From positions 62,001 through 126,000 of the IMG/VR virus record IMGVR_UViG_3300023202_000205: a stretch of DNA of 64,000 nucleotides, one strand, 5' to 3'. Both the position numbers and the translations under genes were made by a program. The notes under the pieces were generated by a model. The model had not been told where the DNA came from. It saw only the letters and a list, made by a program, of their open reading frames with translations, and made no database searches. The stretch is from a virus. Shown here in pieces: positions 17,539-63,963 of the stretch (positions are counted from its first letter, which is position 1; every line of letters begins with the position of its first letter).

Positions 17539-18998
17539 ACCACGTACCTTTCTTCCGGTTCATCACTCGTAAGCAGATTTTTGAGTAGTGCAGCACCCAG
17601 GCCCACTCCCCCACCGATGAGGGCTCCCTTACCAAAGCGCGGTTTGAACTCCCGCCACATAGACGGGCTACTCCCAGGGAGATAGGCGTCCTGTGCTTCC
17701 TGCATCCGTCGAGCAGCGGTGGAAGGTTCCATTTCGGTCGCCTGGAAGTTACGCCCCAGCTGTCCCAGAAGAGCACGCCTGTCTGGCTCAACCGCCTGGT
17801 AGGACTGGTTACCCTGATAAGCCCCGTAACCACCATACCCTAAGCCACCCGCCCCAGCACCACCTAGGGTGTACAGCAGGATGTCAGCCATACTGCCACG
17901 CTTCTCTTCTGAGGCCGTCTTCTTCATGTCCTCAGGCAGGAAAAGCTCTGCGGGGTTGAGTGCGGAGGCGAACTTGGGGCGGTAGACCTCTTGGTCGTCT
18001 TGCTCAGGACGGCCCTTTTCACGAGCCCGATTGAGCAGCCGGTAAAGTGCATATAACCCGACTCCGCCCAAAGCAGCACCGCCGCCCCACTTGGCTACGT
18101 CTCCCCACGGAACGGAACTTCCAAAGTCTACGCCACCACGGACGTTAATAGGAAGCCCCTTCTCGGAGATGTTTTTAAGAGCTTGAGCTCCTGCCCCCGT
18201 CCCTTCTCGAACGTTCTTGATGGCTCCCTTCGCCTCCGAAGTAACGTCACCAAGGCCCTTGGTGCCCTCCTCCAAATTGCTGAGAACCTTGTTCAGATTC
18301 TCTGCCGTGCGGTCAGCTTCGCTTACACCAAGCGCAAGACCACCCAACCCGACTTTGGACCCAAGACCACCAGTCATAGCCCAGGTAGCACGGTTCGAGG
18401 CTCTCGGTCCGAGAATCGCCTCGATGCGGGAAAGATCGTCCATACTGGAGATCTCGATGGGAGGGCCGCCCTTTTGCGGAAGAGTATATGTCCCCGGTGC
18501 CTCTCCCATGTTCCACACGGGGTCGTCGAACTTCCCCTTGCGAGCGGTACGTAGAGCCTTGCCAGGATCACCACCCATGTACTGGTGACGAAGCCCACGC
18601 GTGCCCGAGAGCGCACCAAGCAGGCCAAGTGTCGCCGCACTCTCTGGGCTCTCTGGATCAAGTGCATAGCCAGTACCGGCACCCGCAGCTCCACCACCGG
18701 CTACCCAAGGTACGTCACGTACCATGCCTCGGAGAGCTGGGCCGACAGCCGCCCGCTTCTTGAGGCTCTTTTTGACCGCCTGCCCATTCTTCACATCCAT
18801 CAAACCGGCTCCCTCGAGTTTCTCGTAATAGTTGGGGTCTTCCTGGAGGTGCTCTTCAGCGATCTGCTCCGCCTCTGCTGAATCAGATGTGTGCTCAAGT
18901 TCCTCTTCGGAACCGAGCTCGCGCTCCTTCTCGATCGGCCATTTTCCCTCTCGAGCGGCCTTAGAAAGGATGCGTTCCACCGTTTCAGCAGGGGTCAT
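17535..18998 (-). CDS. Virion-block membrane protein with DUF5661-like N-terminus
   Basis: 487 residues. Residues about 28-62 (SEEELEHTSDSAEAEQIAEEH, then LQEDPNYYEKLE) match the DUF5661 pattern of an ELEHT helix followed by a conserved DPxYY. Glycine-rich hydrophobic stretches follow at about 98-112 and 128-140, with further candidates near 320-345, 375-400 and 455-478. ALNPAELFLPE lies at about 350-360. This combination of soluble N-terminus and several weak membrane helices resembles the other proteins of the 4-8 kb block. Function unknown. Confidence 0.7.
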   Translation of the reverse strand: MTPAETVERILSKAAREGKWPIEKERELGSEEELEHTSDSAEAEQIAEEHLQEDPNYYEKLEGAGLMDVKNGQAVKKSLKKRAAVGPALRGMVRDVPWVAGGGAAGAGTGYALDPESPESAATLGLLGALSGTRGLRHQYMGGDPGKALRTARKGKFDDPVWNMGEAPGTYTLPQKGGPPIEISSMDDLSRIEAILGPRASNRATWAMTGGLGSKVGLGGLALGVSEADRTAENLNKVLSNLEEGTKGLGDVTSEAKGAIKNVREGTGAGAQALKNISEKGLPINVRGGVDFGSSVPWGDVAKWGGGAALGGVGLYALYRLLNRAREKGRPEQDDQEVYRPKFASALNPAELFLPEDMKKTASEEKRGSMADILLYTLGGAGAGGLGYGGYGAYQGNQSYQAVEPDRRALLGQLGRNFQATEMEPSTAARRMQEAQDAYLPGSSPSMWREFKPRFGKGALIGGGVGLGAALLKNLLTSDEPEERYVV

Positions 18999-19006
18999 GG
19001 CACACC

Positions 19007-19195
19007 TCAGGAACGAGACTTGAGAAGTCGGTATAGCTGGTCTACAGGGCTTGCGGACCCTTTCTTCTCCCAGGTTTCAGGGACCCGGTTTTCCTTATTA
19101 GCCGTTGAGTAGAACACTTCTTTAGCCTTCTTGTCAGACTTGTACGTGTCCTTCATCGACTCCATGACTTTTTTGGCCTTGCCCTTGAGCGGCAT
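19007..19195 (-). CDS. Small basic protein
   Basis: 62 residues, ATG with GGGGGTG upstream. The pattern is a Lys-rich helix (KGKAKKVMESMKDTYKSDKKAKEV), then FYSTANKENRVPETW. Short phage proteins with the order 'VM.SMK..Y....K...VFY...NK' are common in large phage genomes, but I know no function for them. First gene downstream of the palindrome at 19294-19309. Confidence 0.6.
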   Translation of the reverse strand: MPLKGKAKKVMESMKDTYKSDKKAKEVFYSTANKENRVPETWEKKGSASPVDQLYRLLKSRS

Positions 19196-19293
19196 AGATC
19201 ACCCCCAGCAGTAGGTACTGTAGTATCCTACGCGAGGACCTGTATAGGGCCACCCTTCTACCTAGGCGGCACCCGTACAGACCCCAGGAGAAA

Positions 19294-19309
19294 GTGTTCG
19301 CGAGAACAC
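19294..19309. promoter_or_regulatory. 16-bp palindromic operator-like site, copy 2
   Basis: GTGTTCGCGAGAACAC; arms perfect, centre GCGA, the only copy without a symmetric or RCGY centre. It touches the stop codon of the 195-residue gene and lies 98 nt above the next start. On the minus strand it is followed by CTTTCTCC, so a terminator role is also conceivable here. Confidence 0.75.
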
Positions 19310-19896
19310 TATCCGTCGATCAGCTCTTTCCCCTTATCGACCGCGAAAGTCGTAGCGAAGTCGGTCAGCTTATCGATCACCGCCTTGGGCAGGAAGGCCC
19401 GAACGCTTTCAGGTAGTTTACCAATCAGCTTGACCAGCACCCTATCCAGCAGATCGTCCAGCTCATCCTCCCCCAGACGTTCAATCAGGTCGATGTTCTC
19501 CTTGGCGAACTTACGCAACACCCTGTCCTTAACGTAGTTACGCAACTTGGTCCAGTGATGGCTCCACCGGAACCCGCCCCCGTCTGAGACATCCTTGAGG
19601 ATTGGGGGGATATTGGTAATCAGCCAATGTTCGGCAGTCGAGATGGCAAACGGAGTCACGCGAGTGTCGATCAGGTGATTCCGCTGCTCCCAGAGAGACT
19701 TTTCCTTGTCGATCTCAGCCTTCTCGGAGTCGACTTTGACCTTCTTACGGACCATCGTCGCGATCCACGTCACGAGGGCCACCAGAGCGGCTCCAGCCAC
19801 GGCCACCCAGGTCGTGGTCTCAGGCATGCCTGAGTCAGCCTCCTCAGCGACAAGCAGAGCTGGCAGCAACAAGAGAACGAGGGGATGATAACGCAT
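19309..19896 (-). CDS. Signal-peptide membrane protein, lysis candidate
   Basis: 195 residues. An N-terminal signal-like peptide (LVLLLLPALLVAEEAD) is followed by one transmembrane helix at about 29-49 (TTTWVAVAGAALVALVTWIA), then a basic KKVK stretch and a helical charged cytoplasmic or periplasmic domain. A single membrane helix followed by a charged helix is seen in LLH-type holins and in phage membrane anchors, but no family signature is decisive. Excellent ribosome site (AAAGGAG). Placed between the fibre genes and the head block. Confidence 0.6.
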   Translation of the reverse strand: MRYHPLVLLLLPALLVAEEADSGMPETTTWVAVAGAALVALVTWIATMVRKKVKVDSEKAEIDKEKSLWEQRNHLIDTRVTPFAISTAEHWLITNIPPILKDVSDGGGFRWSHHWTKLRNYVKDRVLRKFAKENIDLIERLGEDELDDLLDRVLVKLIGKLPESVRAFLPKAVIDKLTDFATTFAVDKGKELIDG

Positions 19897-35495: not shown

Positions 35496-35550
35496 ACGGG
35501 CCAGTCTCGTAAAACGGCCGCCAGAGACAATACCCCTCAGCGGAAGAAGT

Positions 35551-35620
35551 AGCCCCACCCGGACTCGAACCGAGACCCCCAGGGCCAGAACCTGGTGCTC
35601 TACCAATTGAGCTATAGGGC
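35551..35620 (-). tRNA. tRNA-Gln (anticodon CTG)
   Basis: Cloverleaf read on the minus strand: acceptor GCCCTAT pairing with GTGGGGC, anticodon stem CCAGG/CCTGG, loop TTCTGGC giving anticodon CTG, T-arm with GGTTCGAGTCC. No encoded CCA. Confidence 0.9.
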
Positions 35621-35634
35621 GCTAAGATGCTTCC

Positions 35635-35931
35635 ATGAACCCACTCTTCTCCGCTCTCGCTGATGCCTTTGGAAAAGTCACTGGTGCGTGGCTCTACTTT
35701 ATCGGTAGTGAGGTTGTCCTCGTCACGTCGGCTGTGTCGCTACTCCTGGCAAATAGCGACGCTACCTTCGACTCATTCAACGAGCCACCTGCACCACCCC
35801 CAGAGCCACCTAGCTACGCTTTCATCGCCTACGTCATGCTGGGGTTTGTCCTGCTACGAGCTGCATGGTTGATGGGTGGACTCCTTTTTGCCAAGAAAGC
35901 TATTGAGAAGGCCGTCGAGAAAGACGGGTAA
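35635..35931 (+). CDS. Small two-helix membrane protein inside the tRNA cluster
   Basis: 98 residues on the plus strand, opposite to nearly all other genes. Two hydrophobic helices (about 19-39, WLYFIGSEVVLVTSAVSLLLA; about 62-84, FIAYVMLGFVLLRAAWLMGGL) are joined by a loop with PPAPPPEPP, and the C-terminus is charged (KKAIEKAVEKDG). No clear ribosome site. Size and topology are compatible with a holin or a superinfection-type membrane protein, but nothing proves either. No competing minus-strand gene exists here. Confidence 0.55.
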   Translation: MNPLFSALADAFGKVTGAWLYFIGSEVVLVTSAVSLLLANSDATFDSFNEPPAPPPEPPSYAFIAYVMLGFVLLRAAWLMGGLLFAKKAIEKAVEKDG

Positions 35932-36000
35932 AGCCCGGCCAGGAATCGAACCTGAGCACCCAGGGCCAAAACCTGGTGCACTACCACTATGCTACCGAGC
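35932..36000 (-). tRNA. tRNA-Gln (anticodon TTG)
   Basis: Minus-strand cloverleaf: acceptor GCTCGGT with GCCGGGC, anticodon stem CCAGG/CCTGG and loop TTTTGGC giving TTG, T-loop GGTTCGATTCC. A second Gln tRNA, reading CAA where the other reads CAG. Confidence 0.9.
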
Positions 36001-36005
36001 TATAT

Positions 36006-36090
36006 CGGAGAGGGTGGGATTCGAACCCACGGAGGCTCACGCCTCGACGGTTTTCAAAACCGCTGCATTCAACCGCTCTGCCACCTCTCC
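36006..36090 (-). tRNA. tRNA-Ser (anticodon TGA)
   Basis: Long variable arm (GTCGAGGCGTGAGCCTCC region) typical of tRNA-Ser. Acceptor GGAGAGG with CCTCTCC, anticodon loop TTTGAAA giving TGA. Confidence 0.93.
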
Positions 36091-36095
36091 CCATA

Positions 36096-36169
36096 TCGGA
36101 ACAGCAGGATTCGAACCTGCGACCTTCTGGTCCCAAACCAGACGCTCTGCCAAACTGAGCTATGCTCCG
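36096..36169 (-). tRNA. tRNA-Pro (anticodon TGG)
   Basis: Acceptor CGGAGCA with TGTTCCG, anticodon stem TCTGG/CCAGA, loop TTTGGGA giving TGG, T-arm GGTTCGAATCC. No encoded CCA. Confidence 0.93.
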
Positions 36170-36173
36170 GTAA

Positions 36174-36246
36174 CTGCCCAAGCAGGACTCGAACCTGCAA
36201 CCTCGGCGTTAACGGCGCCTTGCTCTACCAATTGAGCTACTGGGCA
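36174..36246 (-). tRNA. tRNA-Asn (anticodon GTT) with unusual C33
   Basis: Acceptor TGCCCAG with TTGGGCA; anticodon stem GGCG/CGCC with loop CCGTTAA, giving anticodon GTT. Position 33 is C instead of the almost universal U. T-arm GGTTCGAGTCC is normal. Confidence 0.88.
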
Positions 36247-36251
36247 ATAAA

Positions 36252-36327
36252 CTGCGGAAGATGGGACTCGAACCCATAACAAGCGGTTTAGAAGACCACT
36301 ACTCTATCCAATTGAGTTACTTCCGCA
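36252..36327 (-). tRNA. tRNA-Arg (anticodon TCT)
   Basis: Acceptor TGCGGAA with TTCCGCA, anticodon stem GTGGT/ACCGC, loop CTTCTAA giving TCT (reads AGA), T-arm GGTTCGAGTCC. Confidence 0.93.
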
Positions 36328-36333
36328 CGACAA

Positions 36334-36404
36334 TGCTGCACCGAGGAATCGAACCCCGCTCCCTGGGTTACAAAGCCAGAGCATCGCCACAATGCTTGTG
36401 CAGC
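36334..36404 (-). tRNA. tRNA-Thr (anticodon TGT)
   Basis: Acceptor GCTGCAC with GTGCAGC, anticodon loop TTTGTAA giving TGT, T-arm GGTTCGATTCC. The last anticodon-stem pair is a C-C mismatch. First gene of the cluster in the direction of transcription. Confidence 0.9.
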
Positions 36405-36429
36405 GTGTTCGCTATCGATTTTCAAAGAA

Positions 36430-36459
36430 AAACCCCAGCCTTTTTAGGGGCTGGGGTTT
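36430..36459 (-). terminator. Rho-independent terminator upstream of the tRNA cluster
   Basis: Inverted repeat AAACCCCAGCC / GGCTGGGGTTT, 11 bp with an 8-nt loop. On the minus strand the stem is followed by TTTTTCTTT, ideal for leftward transcripts. The plus side has TTTCTTG, so it may work both ways. It separates the 72-residue gene from the tRNAs, which therefore need their own promoter or read-through. Confidence 0.85.
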
Positions 36460-36488
36460 CTTGTGTGGGAGAAGACCTTGATCTTGTT

Positions 36489-36540
36489 ACACAAACACCC
36501 CAGCAGGCGCTCTATTCGAGGAGCCTGGGTTCTGTTGTGT
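36489..36540. other. Stem-loop element beside the terminator
   Basis: Nested pairing ACACAA/TTGTGT, CCCA/TGGG, GGC/GCC and CTC/GAG around loop TATTC. It may be a second terminator or a processed leader. The strand is not determined. Confidence 0.45.
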
Positions 36541-42660: not shown

Positions 42661-42981
42661 GTCACAGATACCAAACCTCTAAGCGGGCATAGCGAGGAGT
42701 ACCAGGGCCAGACGATCCACCTCGGCACCATAGTCAGTCACAGATACCAAGCCTCTGAGCGGGCATAGCGAGTGAGCGCGGGGTAGCTAACAGTCATTTA
42801 GGGGGCGTCACAGATACCAAGCCTCTGAGCGGGCATAGCGAGCACCCAACGGATCCCTCGTTCTCAGGCACAGTCACAGATACCAAGCCTCTGAGCGGGC
42901 ATAGCGAGCTCAGCACAGCGCTGGTCGGTGGGCGCCCGCTGGTCAGTCACAGATACCAAGCCTCTGAGCGGGCATAGCGAG
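42661..42981. repeat. CRISPR-like array: five 36-nt direct repeats with unique spacers
   Basis: Repeat copies at 42661-42696, 42737-42772, 42807-42842, 42873-42908 and 42946-42981. Plus-strand ends of the repeat: GTCACAGATACCAAGC ... GAGCGGGCATAGCGAG. Four copies are identical; the copy at 42661 has two substitutions and is the one furthest from the conserved hairpin, as expected of a leader-distal CRISPR repeat. Spacers are 40, 34, 30 and 37 nt and unrelated. Against CRISPR: no cas gene in the window, uneven spacers, and single copies elsewhere. On the minus strand the order is hairpin, repeat, spacer, repeat. Confidence 0.6.
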
Positions 42982-43046
42982 AGGGCCTTTATAACTAGGT
43001 TCATGGAACCGTGTTATATCGATATCCGCGAGAGCCCTCATCTCAG
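42982..43046 (-). ncRNA. Conserved hairpin adjoining the array (copy 1)
   Basis: About 65 nt that recur next to the single repeat at 43721. On the minus strand three helices can form: GGGCUCU with a partly matching AAGGCCC, UAUAAC with GUUAUA, and GGUUC with GAACC around CAU. It could be an array leader or a structured RNA. Confidence 0.45.
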
Positions 43047-43173
43047 CTGATCCTAGCACCCTTTAGATCACTGCAATATCTCCACCTAAACCACTATCAG
43101 CAAAGAACATCGAGCGCCTCCCAGGTTTTCCCGACCAGAAAGGCGCTCGAAACTTGCTGACAACCCTCACTCA

Positions 43174-43207: not shown

Positions 43208-43267
43208 ATGGACGATGGTGTGCGTGATGGCAGCGATCCGAGGATGGTTCGGGTTCTGCTAGAATAG
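43208..43267 (+). CDS. Possible 19-residue plus-strand leader peptide
   Basis: ATG with a perfect GGAGG 3 nt upstream (GAGGAGGCT before ATG), 19 codons, ending inside the tail of the convergent HTH gene. Supported only by the ribosome site and the palindrome spacing. Confidence 0.25.
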   Translation: MDDGVRDGSDPRMVRVLLE

Positions 43268-43651
43268 TACAGATAATTTACCTATGAGGCGTCCGATCTC
43301 CTCCGCTGGCACACGCCAGAGGTGAGGTCCAAGCTTACGAGCTTCGATACGGCCGTCTCGAGCCATGCGACGAACAGTCTCCTCACAAAGGCCTAGAATC
43401 GTCGCCGTTTCTCTGATGGTATAGGCTGAGTCTGAAACGATACAGACATCCAGCTTCTGATGGGAAGGGAGCCACCGCCGATCACCAATGCGGACGATCA
43501 ACCCAAGCTTCTCCGGATTACCCCAGGCGGGTTCTGTGCCGCGCTCCCAGAGCGAATCCGTCATCGATTTGGCTGGATTTTGATAGACCGCCCTGACGAA
43601 CTCGGCTTCCAAGTCGCTCAGTAGGTCGTTTAGCAGAACTGCTCTGCTCAT
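43259..43651 (-). CDS. HTH protein, excisionase/MerR-like
   Basis: 130 residues. The C-terminal domain AYTIRETATILGLCEETVRR, MARDGRIEARKLGPHLWRVP (residues 77-115) is a helix-turn-helix with a wing, the HTH_17 or excisionase type, and binds DNA. The N-terminal 70 residues are helical and unassigned. Lies between the repeat array and the single repeat with hairpin, so it could act on those elements or on the nearby palindrome. No recombinase is visible nearby, so a transcriptional role is as likely as excision. Confidence 0.8.
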   Translation of the reverse strand: MSRAVLLNDLLSDLEAEFVRAVYQNPAKSMTDSLWERGTEPAWGNPEKLGLIVRIGDRRWLPSHQKLDVCIVSDSAYTIRETATILGLCEETVRRMARDGRIEARKLGPHLWRVPAEEIGRLIGKLSVLF

Positions 43652-43720: not shown

Positions 43721-43756
43721 ATCACAGATACCAAGCCTCTGAGCGGGCATAGCGAG
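43721..43756. repeat. Single copy of the 36-nt repeat beside a hairpin
   Basis: Identical to the array repeat except for the first base (A for G). Preceded by short iterations of GTCAGTGTCA at 43701-43720 and followed directly by hairpin copy 2. Confidence 0.75.
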
Positions 43757-43820
43757 AGGGCTCTTATAACTCGGCTCAGGGAACCGTGTTATATCGCTAT
43801 CCGCGAGAGCCCCCATTTCA
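43757..43820 (-). ncRNA. Conserved hairpin (copy 2)
   Basis: Paired with the repeat it forms a 100-nt composite about 85-90% identical to the one ending the array. On the minus strand GGGCUCU/AGAGCCC, UAUAAC/GUUAUA and GGUUC/GAGCC pair fully. The A-to-G difference in the third helix turns a U-A pair into U-G, which keeps pairing only on the minus strand. Confidence 0.45.
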
Positions 43821-43994
43821 GTCGACCCTAGCTTTATCCCCCTCGCCATGGGTTTCCCGCTCTCCTGCCAGATACAGCAGGTCTCGAACGGTGATGTGAA
43901 CAAACTCGCCGGGCCTGCCTTGTTCACGAGCCCAGTCGATAATCGACTGGATATGGTCAGGCCATTCCTGCTCTCCTTCAGTCTCCTCCGTCAT
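43818..43994 (-). CDS. Small acidic hypothetical protein
   Basis: 58 residues from ATG 43994 with GAGCGAG upstream; overlaps the previous gene by 17 nt. Acidic N-terminus, then a helix pair (HIQSIIDWAREQGRPGEFVH, VRDLLYLAGERE). Not recognised. Confidence 0.5.
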   Translation of the reverse strand: MTEETEGEQEWPDHIQSIIDWAREQGRPGEFVHITVRDLLYLAGERETHGEGDKARVD

Positions 43995-49418: not shown

Positions 49419-49454
49419 GTCACAGATACCAAGCCTCTGAGCGGGCATATCAAG
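49419..49454. repeat. Single 36-nt repeat copy with altered end
   Basis: Matches the array repeat over the first 30 nt, but the end reads CATATCAAG instead of CATAGCGAG. In the 278-nt gap between genes, same orientation as all other copies. No hairpin partner follows. Confidence 0.7.
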
Positions 49455-56440: not shown

Positions 56441-59089
56441 CTAGCTCTGGTGAGCTATGGTGGTCTCGTCGAAACCACAGATGGATTCGTGAGCTTCGCG
56501 ACACGTTGTCGCGTTAGCGTCGACAGGCATGGCGTACACCCGGCCAGTCGAGTTATCTGAGCCATACAGATATTGGTCTGCGTGCATGTCCTGAACCAGG
56601 ATACGGGGAAGACCGTGGTACATGTCCGAGTCAACTAATTTAGTATCGGTATCCCCTAGATATCGCTCAATCCCGTATCGTTCGATCAATACACGACGCA
56701 CCTCTGCGTTTACTTCTCCCCCAATCTCTTCGAGGGTTATCAAGTGAGGTTCCATGATCACGTGTTCTTTCACCCGCACACCATGCCAGTGATATAACGA
56801 CCACCCGTCCCGCCACCTATGCGAAGGACCTTCCTCACAATGTGCGCGGTTTTGCCTGTCTGTAAAGACTACCTCGGGGTTTTCACTTACTACACAGAAC
56901 TTTTCATGAAAACACTGAAAACCACCCTCAGCCGCATCCTCGTAATGTCTCCACTTCTCATACTCCGGGAGATCCAACCAACCCATCTCCCGGAAAGCTG
57001 TGATGAAAGTAATCCAACCGCCCCACGTGCGGCCTCCCTGGTAAACACGGCCCCACTTAGTGGCACAGCCAACAGCATTCTTTATAGAAATGCCAGTCCT
57101 ACAACAGAACAAAGCAACGCCGCATAACACCTGCGAAAGAGTATCCTTTGACCACTTAACCTCTTTCGCCTTACTCATTTCAGCATACACAGCTTCGCGG
57201 GTGGCGTCGCCCACAGCTTCGTGGGTGGCGTCGGACACAGCTCTGAGGGTGGCTTCGTCCACAGCTCTGTGGGTGGCGTCGGACACAGCTCTGAGGGTGG
57301 CGTCGGACACAGCTCTGAGGGTGGCAGCATACACAGCTTCGCGGGTGGCGTCGTCCACAGCTTCGCGGGTGGCGTCGTGCACAGCTCTGTGGGTGGCGTT
57401 GTGCACAGCTCTGAGGGTAGCGTCGGACACAGCTCTGTGGGTGGCTTCGATCACAACATCGCCGGTGACGGCATACACAGCTTCGCGGGTGGCTTCGTCC
57501 ACAGCTCTGTGGGTGGCGGCATACACAGCTTCGCGGGTGGCTTCGTGCACAGCTCCGAGGGTGGCGTCACCCACAGCTTCGCGGGTGACGTCGTCCACAG
57601 CTCTGTAGGTGGCTAAGTCCACAGCTTCGCGGGTGGCAGCGAACACAGCTTCGCGGGTGGCGTCGTCCACAGCTTCGTAGGTGGCGGTGTCCACAGCTTC
57701 GTGGGTGGCGTCGTCCACAGCTTCGTGGGTGGCGTCGTCCACAGCTCTGAGGGTGGCGTCGTGCACAGCTTTGCGGGTGGCGTCGCTCACAGCTCTGAGG
57801 GTGGCGTCGTGCACAGCTTCGAGGGTGGCGTCGTCCACAGCTCTGTAGGTGGCTAAGTCCACAGCTCTGAGGGTGGCGTTGTGCACAGCTTCATGGGTGG
57901 CGTTGTGCACAGCTTCGCCGGTGGCGTCGTTCACAGCTCTGAGGGTGGCGATGTCCACAGCTTCGAGGGTGGCGTCGTGCACAGCTCTGTAGGTGGCGTT
58001 GTGCACAGCTATGCGGGTGGCGTCGTCCACAGCTTCTTGGGTGGCGTCGCCCACAGCTTCGTGGGTGGCTTCGTGCACAGCTTCGCGGGTGGCGTCGTGC
58101 ACAGCTCTGTGGGTGGCGTTGTGCACAGCTCTGAGGGTAGCGTCGGACACAGCTCTGTGGGTGGCGTCGTCCACAGCTCTGCGGGTAGCGTCGGACACAG
58201 CTCTGTGGGTGGCGAAGTGCACAGCTCTGAGGGTGGCGTCGTCCACAGCTCTGCGGATGGCGATGTGCACAGCTTCGCGGGTGGCGTCGCCCACAGCGTC
58301 GGACACAGCTTCGCGGGTGGCGTCGTCCACAGCTCTGTGGGTGGCAGCGAACACAGCTCTGAGGGTGGCAGCGAACACAGCTTCGCGGGTGGCGGTGTCC
58401 ACAGCTCCGAGGGTGGCGTCGTCCACAGCTTCGTAGGTGGCGTCGCCCACAGCTTCGTGGGTGGCGGCATACACAGCTTCGCGGGTGGCTTCGTCCACAG
58501 CTCTGTGGGTGGCGGCATACACAGCTTCGCGGGTGGCGTCGGACACAGCTCTGAGGGTGGCGTCGGACACAGCTCTGAGGGTGGCAGCGAACACAGCTTC
58601 GCGGGTGGTGGCGTCCACAGCTTCGTGGATGGCTTCGTGCACAGCTTCGTGGGTGGCGTCGTCCACAGCTCTGTAGGTGGCTAAGTCCACAGCTCTGAGG
58701 GTGGCGTTGTGCACAGCTTCATGGGTGGCGTTGTGCACAGCTTCGCCGGTGGCGTCGTTCACAGCTCTGAGGGTGGCGTCGTGCACAGCTTCGAGGGTGG
58801 TGTCGTGCACAGCATCGCGGGTGGAAGGCCTCGGCATAGACTTAGAGGACTCCTGCCCCTGACGATACCACCACAAGGCAGCCGTACCATAAACCAATGC
58901 CATCTGCAGGGGGCTATCAACAATCACTACTTTCGGTTCCGATAGTCCTGCAGATTCGTATAACCCTCGAATACCGCTGATAACGCGGTCCCGATCACAA
59001 CGCTCGGTAGAGCGCGTATGTTCGATCCACTTTTCTGTATGTTTCTTCAGGTTCTCGTAGTCCTGTTCCGTTAAGTCAAGGTGCAGCAT
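56441..59089 (-). CDS. DUF6745-type protein with about 68 octapeptide repeats
   Basis: 882 residues from ATG 59089 (AAAGGAGTGC upstream); the ATG at 59167 has no ribosome site. Three parts: a short N-terminal domain (LDLTEQDYENLKKHTEKW, VVIVDSPLQMALVYG), about 550 residues of consecutive octads of the form A-V-x-x-A-T-x-(R/E), e.g. AVDDATRE and AVSDATLR, and a C-terminal domain with WRDGWSLYHWHGVRVKEHVI and IERYGIERYLGD, typical of DUF6745 proteins. In relatives a shorter run of similar small-residue repeats occupies the same place. The repeat is probably a regular helical or coiled array. Function unknown. The reverse strand is also open for hundreds of codons, which is a composition artefact. 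Confidence 0.75.
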   Translation of the reverse strand: MLHLDLTEQDYENLKKHTEKWIEHTRSTERCDRDRVISGIRGLYESAGLSEPKVVIVDSPLQMALVYGTAALWWYRQGQESSKSMPRPSTRDAVHDTTLEAVHDATLRAVNDATGEAVHNATHEAVHNATLRAVDLATYRAVDDATHEAVHEAIHEAVDATTREAVFAATLRAVSDATLRAVSDATREAVYAATHRAVDEATREAVYAATHEAVGDATYEAVDDATLGAVDTATREAVFAATLRAVFAATHRAVDDATREAVSDAVGDATREAVHIAIRRAVDDATLRAVHFATHRAVSDATRRAVDDATHRAVSDATLRAVHNATHRAVHDATREAVHEATHEAVGDATQEAVDDATRIAVHNATYRAVHDATLEAVDIATLRAVNDATGEAVHNATHEAVHNATLRAVDLATYRAVDDATLEAVHDATLRAVSDATRKAVHDATLRAVDDATHEAVDDATHEAVDTATYEAVDDATREAVFAATREAVDLATYRAVDDVTREAVGDATLGAVHEATREAVYAATHRAVDEATREAVYAVTGDVVIEATHRAVSDATLRAVHNATHRAVHDATREAVDDATREAVYAATLRAVSDATLRAVSDATHRAVDEATLRAVSDATHEAVGDATREAVYAEMSKAKEVKWSKDTLSQVLCGVALFCCRTGISIKNAVGCATKWGRVYQGGRTWGGWITFITAFREMGWLDLPEYEKWRHYEDAAEGGFQCFHEKFCVVSENPEVVFTDRQNRAHCEEGPSHRWRDGWSLYHWHGVRVKEHVIMEPHLITLEEIGGEVNAEVRRVLIERYGIERYLGDTDTKLVDSDMYHGLPRILVQDMHADQYLYGSDNSTGRVYAMPVDANATTCREAHESICGFDETTIAHQS
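57185..58830 (-). repeat. 24-bp tandem repeat tract encoding octapeptides
   Basis: About 1.65 kb of degenerate 24-bp units. On the plus strand each reads roughly CACAGCT(C/T)yGnGGGTGGCGnC with variation mostly at codons 3, 4, 7 and 8. Some blocks recur exactly, e.g. 57835-57990 and 58670-58800, showing block duplication. Confidence 0.85.
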
Positions 59090-59381
59090 TGTGCACTCCT
59101 TTCCTGTAGAGCAGGGAACGGCTCTTACCGTCCCTTGCAGTTTTCTAGAATAGCTGATAGTTTTCAAACAACCAGCATAGAAGGGTCACTAGAGAGTATC
59201 GTCATAAGTCGTGTGTCTGTAGGGGTTTACGTACCCCGCGATACCAGACCTTATCAGCCCTCCCAAAACAACCCCACTTTACCCATCTTTCTGACACATG
59301 TCGCCACAGACGACAAAACCCCATTATCCAAATAACACCCCTTTGATCACTTTTTGAGCGATAACAAAACGACTCTTTGAG

Positions 59382-61226: not shown

Positions 61227-61439
61227 TTAGTAACTTCGCGGAAAAAGGAGAAAAACCAAAAGAATAGCAGTGACGATCGTCATGAATATGTCAAATCCAG
61301 TGACGCCCGCGTAGCCCGCAGATTGGCTCTGTATGATCACAATCAAAAACCAAACCGCTAAAAGCAGCCCAGCTAGGATTATGTCAAATCCAGTGACGCC
61401 CGCGTAGCCCGCAGATTGGCTCTGTATGATCACAATCAA
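61227..61439 (-). CDS. Small membrane protein built from a tandem duplication
   Basis: Two membrane helices. VIIQSQSAGYAGVTGFDI occurs twice because a 93-bp unit is duplicated in the DNA. The frame opens above 61439 (T at TTG) without a good start; an ATC preceded by AGGAGG lies near 61485. Holin-like size, but the duplication and missing start make function uncertain. Confidence 0.45.
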   Translation of the reverse strand: MIVIIQSQSAGYAGVTGFDIILAGLLLAVWFLIVIIQSQSAGYAGVTGFDIFMTIVTAILLVFLLFPRSY

Positions 61440-61471
61440 AAACCAAACCGCTAAAAGCAGCCCAGCTAGGA
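61288..61471. repeat. Tandem duplication, 93-bp unit
   Basis: 61288-61380 and 61381-61471 are identical as far as I can read, beginning ATGTCAAATCC and ending AGCTAGGAT on the plus strand. The unit is a multiple of three, so the frame is kept. Confidence 0.9.
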
Positions 61472-63528: not shown

Positions 63529-63963
63529 TTACGCGTCCTGCTCTCCTTCTTTTTCCTCTTGCTCTACAATCAGACGGTCCAACGCCTCGTTGAAACTCAT
63601 CCCCTCGGTCCGCAACTGGTCGAGCCGCTTGGCCAACTCCCTATCGGCCCCTACCCTGCGCCACATACCAATCCGCTCCGACCCGCTCCTGGCCCTCGGA
63701 GGTGGATCACCAAGGTCGTAACATATCTGGTAACCTGTCACAGATACCAAGCCGCTGAACGGGCATAGCGAGCCGGCGAGATGGGTAGCGACGGAATCAG
63801 CCGTATCAGAGCTCCTCACACCAACTAGGTTGTCCGTAGTCCCGCAGTTTTGGAGCCCCGAGCCCAAAAACGTAGTCCAGCTAACCCCAGTAGCGCTCGA
63901 AGCTAGCAAGCTTCCCGAACTTTGGCACTCCTGGCCCTCTCTGCTCTCCGTCTCCTCCTCCAT
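63529..63963 (-). CDS. Hypothetical protein containing a repeat copy, start uncertain
   Basis: 144 residues from ATG 63963, which has GAAGGAG at good spacing. The N-terminal 95 residues are Ser/Gly/Thr-rich and atypical. The C-terminal 45 (VGADRELAKRLDQLRTEGMS, NEALDRLIVEQEEKEG) look like a genuine helical domain. ATG 63666 with GGAG upstream could be the real start. The repeat copy at 63737-63772 falls in the doubtful part. Confidence 0.45.
   Translation of the reverse strand: MEEETESREGQECQSSGSLLASSATGVSWTTFLGSGLQNCGTTDNLVGVRSSDTADSVATHLAGSLCPFSGLVSVTGYQICYDLGDPPPRARSGSERIGMWRRVGADRELAKRLDQLRTEGMSFNEALDRLIVEQEEKEGEQDA
63737..63772. repeat. Single 36-nt repeat copy, most right-hand
   Basis: Same family as the 42.6-kb array with two substitutions (CCGCTGAAC for CCTCTGAGC). 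Same orientation as the other seven. Either intergenic or inside the doubtful N-terminus of the last gene. Confidence 0.7.

What the first reader, a model, noticed from the sequence alone, without database searches (positions are those of the whole stretch)
42661..42981. CRISPR-like five-repeat array without cas genes
Five 36-nt repeats with unique spacers of 30-40 nt. The repeat furthest from the conserved hairpin is the only degenerate one, as in a CRISPR array whose hairpin side is the leader. It might be a phage mini-array using host Cas proteins, or a new kind of repeat-RNA array. Uneven spacer lengths and single copies elsewhere argue for caution.
Basis: partly seen in the sequence, partly recalled or inferred. 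Interest (0 to 1): 0.78.

Follow-up and report, generated by a model that had tools for sequence, protein, structure and literature searches.

The report
Phage CRISPR-Cas12m with scattered arrays
The repeat array is one of three real CRISPR arrays in a large bacteriophage that also carries its own DNA-binding, probably non-cutting CRISPR protein (Cas12m) about 61 kb away, and the phage and a distant relative also have single CRISPR repeats scattered elsewhere, many of them just in front of genes, including the gene for that protein.

Summary
In detail: five 36-nt repeats with four different spacers at 42661-42981. It is not an array without cas genes. The window is 64 kb of a 179,364-base phage contig with 33 copies of the repeat, all in one orientation: three arrays (5, 9 and 13 repeats; 24 distinct spacers) and six single repeats. 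Each array has the same leader at one end and its most degenerate repeat at the other, so crRNA runs on the minus strand. The contig encodes a 626-aa Cas12m (subtype V-M; PDB Cas12m E=2e-40), between the other two arrays. Its aligned RuvC catalytic positions read Met-Pro-Asp, so binding without cutting is expected. The repeat matches the published Cas12m pseudoknot. No cas1, cas2 or cas4 was found. A related phage (89 shared proteins, mean 44% identity) has Cas12m, a related repeat, different spacers, and many scattered single repeats. In both phages a single repeat lies upstream of cas12m. One spacer perfectly matches the phage's own gene; no foreign target was found. Best reading: a phage-borne, self-contained type V-M system that silences DNA by binding, with a possible second role for single repeats in regulating phage genes (inferred). 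A new variant of a known kind.

The parts
42661..42696 (-). Array 1, terminal (leader-distal) degenerate repeat
   Evidence: 2 mismatches to consensus; terminal repeat also the degenerate one in arrays 2 and 3
42697..42736 (-). Array 1 spacer 4 (40 nt)
   Evidence: no match in phage or plasmid collections
42737..42772 (-). Array 1 repeat, perfect
42773..42806 (-). Array 1 spacer 3 (34 nt)
42807..42842 (-). Array 1 repeat, perfect
42843..42872 (-). Array 1 spacer 2 (30 nt)
42873..42908 (-). Array 1 repeat, perfect
42909..42945 (-). Array 1 spacer 1 (37 nt, leader-proximal); no exact IMG/VR match to its first 22 nt
42946..42981 (-). Array 1 leader-proximal repeat, perfect; crRNA sense CTCGCTATGCCCGCTCAGAGGCTTGGTATCTGTGAC
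   Evidence: Cas12m-type pseudoknot fits
42982..43153 (-). Leader of array 1, shared with arrays 2 and 3: dyads TATAAC/GTTATA and GGTTC/GAACC next to the first repeat, then about 115 nt of conserved sequence and an upstream GAGCGCC...GGCGCTC hairpin
   Evidence: alignment of leader copies; folding z-score -2.8 for the 59-nt dyad on the plus strand
43259..43651 (-). 130-aa excisionase/regulator-type HTH protein between two leader copies; association with the system is by position only
   Evidence: PHROG_66 E=1.7e-6
43721..43756 (-). Single repeat, 69 nt 5' of the HTH gene start
   Evidence: 1 mismatch; distance
43757..43832 (-). Second leader copy attached to the single repeat (a zero-spacer array)
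   Evidence: 116-nt repeat plus leader element is 90% identical to the array 1 copy
49419..49454 (-). Single repeat
   Evidence: 2 mismatches; downstream small ORF not supported by the RBS/start test
63737..63772 (-). Single repeat in the 5' part of a minus-strand ORF
   Evidence: 2 mismatches; start codon not resolved by the test

Best explanation
[quoted passage not shown] From the leader, the array is transcribed on the minus strand. The pre-crRNA repeats fold into the Cas12m pseudoknot and are processed by the phage's own Cas12m, encoded at contig 166465-168345, about 61 kb from array 1. Cas12m carrying a crRNA binds matching DNA next to a PAM and blocks transcription or replication there without cutting. 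Steps shown by sequence here: three arrays with shared leader and polarity, distinct spacers, a V-M effector on the same contig, a repeat of the V-M type, substituted RuvC catalytic residues, no adaptation genes found. Steps inferred from characterised relatives: processing by Cas12m, PAM-dependent binding, silencing. Most likely use: competition with other mobile elements in a shared host, and possibly control of the phage's own genes. Confidence in the identification alone is about 0.95; in silencing as the working mode about 0.75.
For: Contig-wide: 33 repeats, all one strand; arrays of 5, 9 and 13 repeats with 24 distinct spacers of 19-40 nt, and the most degenerate repeat at the leader-distal end of all three; longest word shared by any two spacers 11 nt. 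Leader shared by the three arrays. Effector: 626 aa, PDB Cas12m 23vw E=2.3e-40, PADLOC Cas12u1 E=9e-71, open frame without stops. Repeat shares the 14-nt core GCTCAGAGGCTTGG with one repeat variant of the Allomeiothermus silvanus Cas12m plasmid array and resembles the Rctr197k phage Cas12m array. The published Cas12m pseudoknot and stem (PMC10442227) pairs 90.5% of cells across 28 repeat variants, against at most 50% when slid, with a C-G to U-A double change. RuvC positions M-P-D where relatives carry D/N and E/D/K. No Cas1, Cas2 or Cas4. A related phage carries Cas12m plus a related array with other spacers. Cas12m without cleavage, silencing plasmids and phages: PMC11013384, PMC10442227.
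Against: No spacer has a foreign target: none in 50,697 phage records or 72,556 plasmids (only E of about 4), and none for the 22-nt seeds of three leader-proximal spacers in IMG/VR. The one perfect target is the phage's own gene, and its flank GGC is not the TTN PAM known for two Cas12m proteins. The repeat has a U.U mismatch in the pseudoknot that relatives lack. The effector's zinc ribbon is shortened and its RuvC is further eroded than in relatives, so decay is possible. No expression data.
Confidence: 0.85

Rival explanations
1. A phage mini-array that borrows host Cas proteins, or an RNA anti-CRISPR made of single repeats.
For: Viral mini-arrays and single repeat units of this kind are known (PMC11656645); the array in the window lies about 61 kb from the effector; six single repeats exist.
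Against: The contig has its own effector matching the repeat type. 24 spacers, not one or two. The searched repeat core is absent from the GTDB species genomes.
Confidence: 0.07
2. A decayed, non-functional remnant of a V-M system.
For: RuvC reads M-P-D, zinc ribbon shortened; a U.U mismatch in the repeat pseudoknot; a self-matching spacer is tolerated.
Against: The frame is intact; the repeats are nearly perfect and the only strongly changed ones are terminal; Cas12m proteins with substituted RuvC residues are active binders (PMC11013384); the association is seen in two phages diverged to about 44% mean protein identity.
Confidence: 0.12
3. The repeats are DNA elements (promoter, operator, replication or partition iterons), not CRISPR.
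For: Single copies lie upstream of genes in both phages; tandem GTATCTGAGAC half-copies 11 nt apart in the relative look operator-like.
Against: Arrays with unique spacers of fixed polarity, a matching Cas effector, and retention of the RNA pseudoknot with a compensatory change. No sigma-70-like site in the leader region at the tool's threshold.
Confidence: 0.04

Closest known systems
Type V-M (formerly V-U1) CRISPR-Cas12m of plasmids, e.g. Allomeiothermus silvanus pMESIL02 (MsCas12m), Mycolicibacterium mucogenicum and Gordonia otitidis Cas12m
   Same: Effector family, 36-37 nt repeat with stem and pseudoknot and terminal GAC, no adaptation genes found, substituted RuvC residues
   Different: Sits in a 179-kb phage; three dispersed arrays with a shared leader instead of one next to the gene; RuvC reads M-P-D; single repeats scattered in the genome; one spacer matches its own genome
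Virus Rctr197k (KX853510), a 197-kb phage from a DAMO enrichment culture
   Same: Phage with Cas12m (25% identical to this one) and an adjacent CRISPR array with a related repeat; the only other phage record with a full-length relative
   Different: Unrelated phage (4 shared proteins); no copies of that repeat found outside the array; gene annotated only as similar to transposase
IMGVR_UViG_3300023202_000336 (180 kb), and near-identical 57-kb contig 3300022723_000242
   Same: Related phage, 89 shared proteins; Cas12m (29-33% identical); array repeat CCGCTTATGCCCGCTCAGAGGCTTCGTATCTGAGAC; single repeats, one upstream of cas12m
   Different: One array of 9 repeats next to cas12m; many more single repeats of a distinct sub-type; RuvC reads D-E-D
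CreR, crRNA-like regulators of type I and V-A systems (PMC12737573)
   Same: A repeat-bearing element near the cas gene that could autoregulate it
   Different: No guide match of 10 nt or more to the cas12m promoter region was found; here only the repeat is conserved

Membership tests
Type V-M CRISPR-Cas | Effector homologous to Cas12m | tested here: met
   PDB Cas12m E=2.3e-40; PADLOC Cas12u1 E=9e-71
Type V-M CRISPR-Cas | CRISPR array: near-identical repeats, unique spacers, leader, degenerate terminal repeat | tested here: met
   Three arrays, 24 distinct spacers
Type V-M CRISPR-Cas | Repeat forms the Cas12m stem and pseudoknot, with a G.A pair and a final C | tested here: met
   Published structure counted on 28 variants: 90.5% paired; one U.U mismatch in this phage's own repeat
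Type V-M CRISPR-Cas | Does not cut target DNA | not testable with these tools
   Supported by substituted RuvC residues M-P-D in alignment; activity needs an experiment
Type V-M CRISPR-Cas | Guided by crRNA alone, no tracrRNA | not tested
   No RNA data; the leader has a short stretch that could pair with the repeat, and it weakens from array 1 to array 3 (seen by eye)
Type V-M CRISPR-Cas | Spacers target mobile elements next to a PAM | tested here: inconclusive
   No foreign match; one perfect self-match without a TTN PAM
Adaptive system able to acquire spacers | Cas1 and Cas2 (often Cas4) on the genome | tested here: not met
   No match on the contig; controls ring in other genomes. The contig may be incomplete
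Viral mini-array using host Cas | One or two spacers, repeat identical to a host system, no own effector | tested here: not met
   24 spacers, own Cas12m, searched repeat core absent from GTDB species genomes
CreR-type cas autoregulator | Guide partly complementary to the cas promoter | tested here: not met
   No local seed match longer than a partial repeat copy

The most novel reading that the evidence does not exclude
The single repeats are Cas12m-binding RNA elements in the 5' untranslated regions of phage genes. Cas12m, when not occupied by array crRNAs, binds or cleaves these transcripts and so controls a set of phage genes, including its own, through the repeat rather than through a guide. 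Together with the self-matching spacer this would make a phage CRISPR system part of the phage's own gene-control circuit.
Probability: 0.25. Interest if true: 0.88.

Novelty: new variant of a known kind. Interest (0 to 1): 0.62.

Why it matters
Type V-M systems are reported mainly on plasmids and in some prophages. This phage carries one split over three arrays, and a related phage has one too, so it is a natural case of DNA silencing without cutting used by a virus. The scattered, structure-conserving repeats, including one upstream of the effector gene in both phages, make a concrete question testable: does a CRISPR effector also act as an RNA-binding regulator of virus genes? The case also shows that an array without cas genes in a window can have its effector tens of kilobases away.

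Tried and rejected
Single-sequence searches for close Cas12m relatives in IMG/VR and GTDB found none; the relative was reached through the terminase. An alignment of seven Cas12m proteins was too divergent for a profile scan. Exact 36-nt repeat in IMG/VR: none; relaxed repeat: only the related phage. Spacers against phages, plasmids and IMG/VR seeds: nothing convincing. CreR-type guides: not found. Promoter scan of the leader: nothing above chance; a by-eye ATAACA-18-TATAAA reading of the leader was not pursued. TIGR-Tas was considered from memory and set aside because the effector is Cas12m. Gene-start test for single repeats: 4 of 6 here and 11 of 19 in the relative have an RBS plus start codon within 110 nt, against 17-19% of random positions, but 29% of random intergenic positions, so the excess over intergenic sequence is modest. 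By the same rough gene calls only 3 of 6 and 9 of 19 of these copies count as intergenic. Structure prediction was not run: the sequence match to Cas12m was already decisive, and the tool's stated list of accepted loci does not name those this protein came from.

Full report
What is there. No such match occurs in shuffled sequence. Three more single copies are in the window, at 43721, 49419 and 63737, and a 116-nt element made of repeat plus adjoining dyad is duplicated at 42942 and 43717.

The rest of the genome. The window is positions 62001-126000 of a linear virus record of 179,364 bases with 33 copies of the repeat, all on one strand. Besides the array in the window (array 1) there are array 2 at contig 165054-165637 (9 repeats) and array 3 at 171934-172828 (13 repeats), and six single repeats at 36523, 105721, 111419, 125737, 129413 and 168435. 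The 24 spacers are all different (19-40 nt; 21 of 24 are 30-40 nt and three are 19-20 nt). In each array the most degenerate repeat is at the left end, and the right end continues into the same leader of about 170 nt. By the usual CRISPR polarity the array is read from right to left, so crRNA is on the minus strand, the strand of most genes of this contig.

The effector. Between arrays 2 and 3, at contig 166465-168345 on the minus strand, a 626-aa protein matches Cas12m: PDB 23vw at E=2.3e-40, Cas12m2 and Gordonia Cas12m more weakly, PADLOC Cas12u1 at E=9e-71. In an alignment with six relatives, the RuvC residues are Met, Pro and Asp where the others have D or N at the first position, E, D or K at the second, and D at the third. 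Characterised Cas12m proteins with D-E-D, H-D-D or N-D-D bind DNA and do not cut it (PMC11013384). Absence of cutting is thus expected here but not shown. A 213-aa protein without convincing family matches follows the effector gene, and then the leader of array 2. No Cas1, Cas2 or Cas4 was found on the contig, with working controls; the record may be incomplete.

The repeat fits the effector. The core GCTCAGAGGCTTGG is identical to that in one of the repeat variants of the Allomeiothermus silvanus plasmid array next to its Cas12m, and the repeat of Rctr197k, a phage with Cas12m, is similar. The Cas12m2 crRNA structure (PMC10442227) has a stem, a six-pair pseudoknot, a G.A pair and a final C. 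Written on this repeat, the same structure pairs 90.5% of cells over 28 distinct variants from two phages, against at most 50% when the partners are slid. One pair changes from C-G to U-A in ten variants; these may be few independent events. This phage's own repeat has a U.U mismatch in the pseudoknot. The conserved part of the scattered copies is positions 6-36, close to the part ordered in the Cas12m2 structure, where the first seven nucleotides are disordered.

Relatives. The terminase finds a 180-kb IMG/VR contig (G004) and a 57-kb contig 99.9% identical to part of it. G004 shares 89 proteins with this phage at a mean 44% identity. It has a Cas12m (29-33% identical) with RuvC D-E-D, an array with the related repeat, and none of the same spacers. 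So the system is shared by the two phages and the spacers differ. Rctr197k shares only four proteins but also has Cas12m and an array. Among 50,697 phage records it is the only one with a full-length relative.

Targets. One spacer (array 3, second from the leader, contig 172683-172718) matches the phage's own gene 18695-19351 over its full 36 nt, 65 nt into the gene. The match ends at the spacer ends. The gene has no family match and lies next to a baseplate-type gene. The flank on the non-target strand is GGC, not TTN. Whether this spacer is silent, was taken from a related phage, or controls the gene cannot be told. No other spacer has a match in its own genome, G004 or Rctr197k beyond 16 nt, and none was found in the phage or plasmid collections. 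Three leader-proximal seeds have no exact match in IMG/VR.

Single repeats. In this phage, single repeats lie 89 nt before the start of cas12m, 69 nt before the HTH gene, 37 nt before contig gene 128506-129375 and 14 nt before 35684-36508. In G004, 35 of 35 copies of the 3' motif CGTATCTGAGAC (up to one mismatch), array copies included, are on the crRNA strand; that strand also carries about 87% of the coding sequence, so strand alone is weak evidence. A single repeat precedes cas12m there too. The gene at contig 164117-164950 follows array 2 here, and its relative in G004 follows a single repeat. Many G004 copies belong to a sub-type that differs from its array repeat by the compensatory change above. 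Near-start location is enriched over random positions (4 of 6 and 11 of 19 against 17-19%) but only modestly over intergenic positions (29%). Rctr197k has no copies of its Cas12m-array repeat outside the array. Two of this phage's single repeats carry a leader copy or part of one and may be remnants of arrays. The regulatory reading is therefore open, and I give it 0.25.

Verdict. The array is a true CRISPR array belonging to a self-contained type V-M system of the phage. It is new mainly in its setting (a large phage, three arrays, single repeats, self-match), not in kind.

Noticed in passing
window 12757, 19294, 29607, 32540, 40961, 43174, 49220, 53920, 62968 (15 copies on the contig): Palindrome GTGTTCNCGNGAACAC occurs 15 times on the contig, several times within about 130 nt of a gene start, but once in the relative G004 and never in Rctr197k; it looks like an operator of a phage regulon.
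   Followed up: partly
window 57091-58900: More than 60 overlapping register copies of a head-to-tail 24-nt unit (8 codons) inside the 908-aa ORF 56441-59167.
   Followed up: no
window 35549-36404: Seven tRNA genes in a cluster.
   Followed up: no
window 61284-61469: A 93-nt tandem duplication, 99% identical.
   Followed up: no
L071:1765-1977 (G004:161765-161977): A short ORF just after a group of repeat copies in G004 resembles the C-terminal part of Cas12 (E=9e-6).
   Followed up: no
L038:6652-6906: Rctr197k has a second CRISPR array with a different repeat next to another transposase-like protein.
   Followed up: no
L068:9646-10200 (G004 array), and arrays 2 and 3 at L037:2054-2637 and L037:8934-9828: Spacer lengths fall in two classes in both phages, 18-20 nt and 30-40 nt; a 17-bp guide duplex is reported as optimal for Cas12m2, so short spacers could work.
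   Followed up: partly
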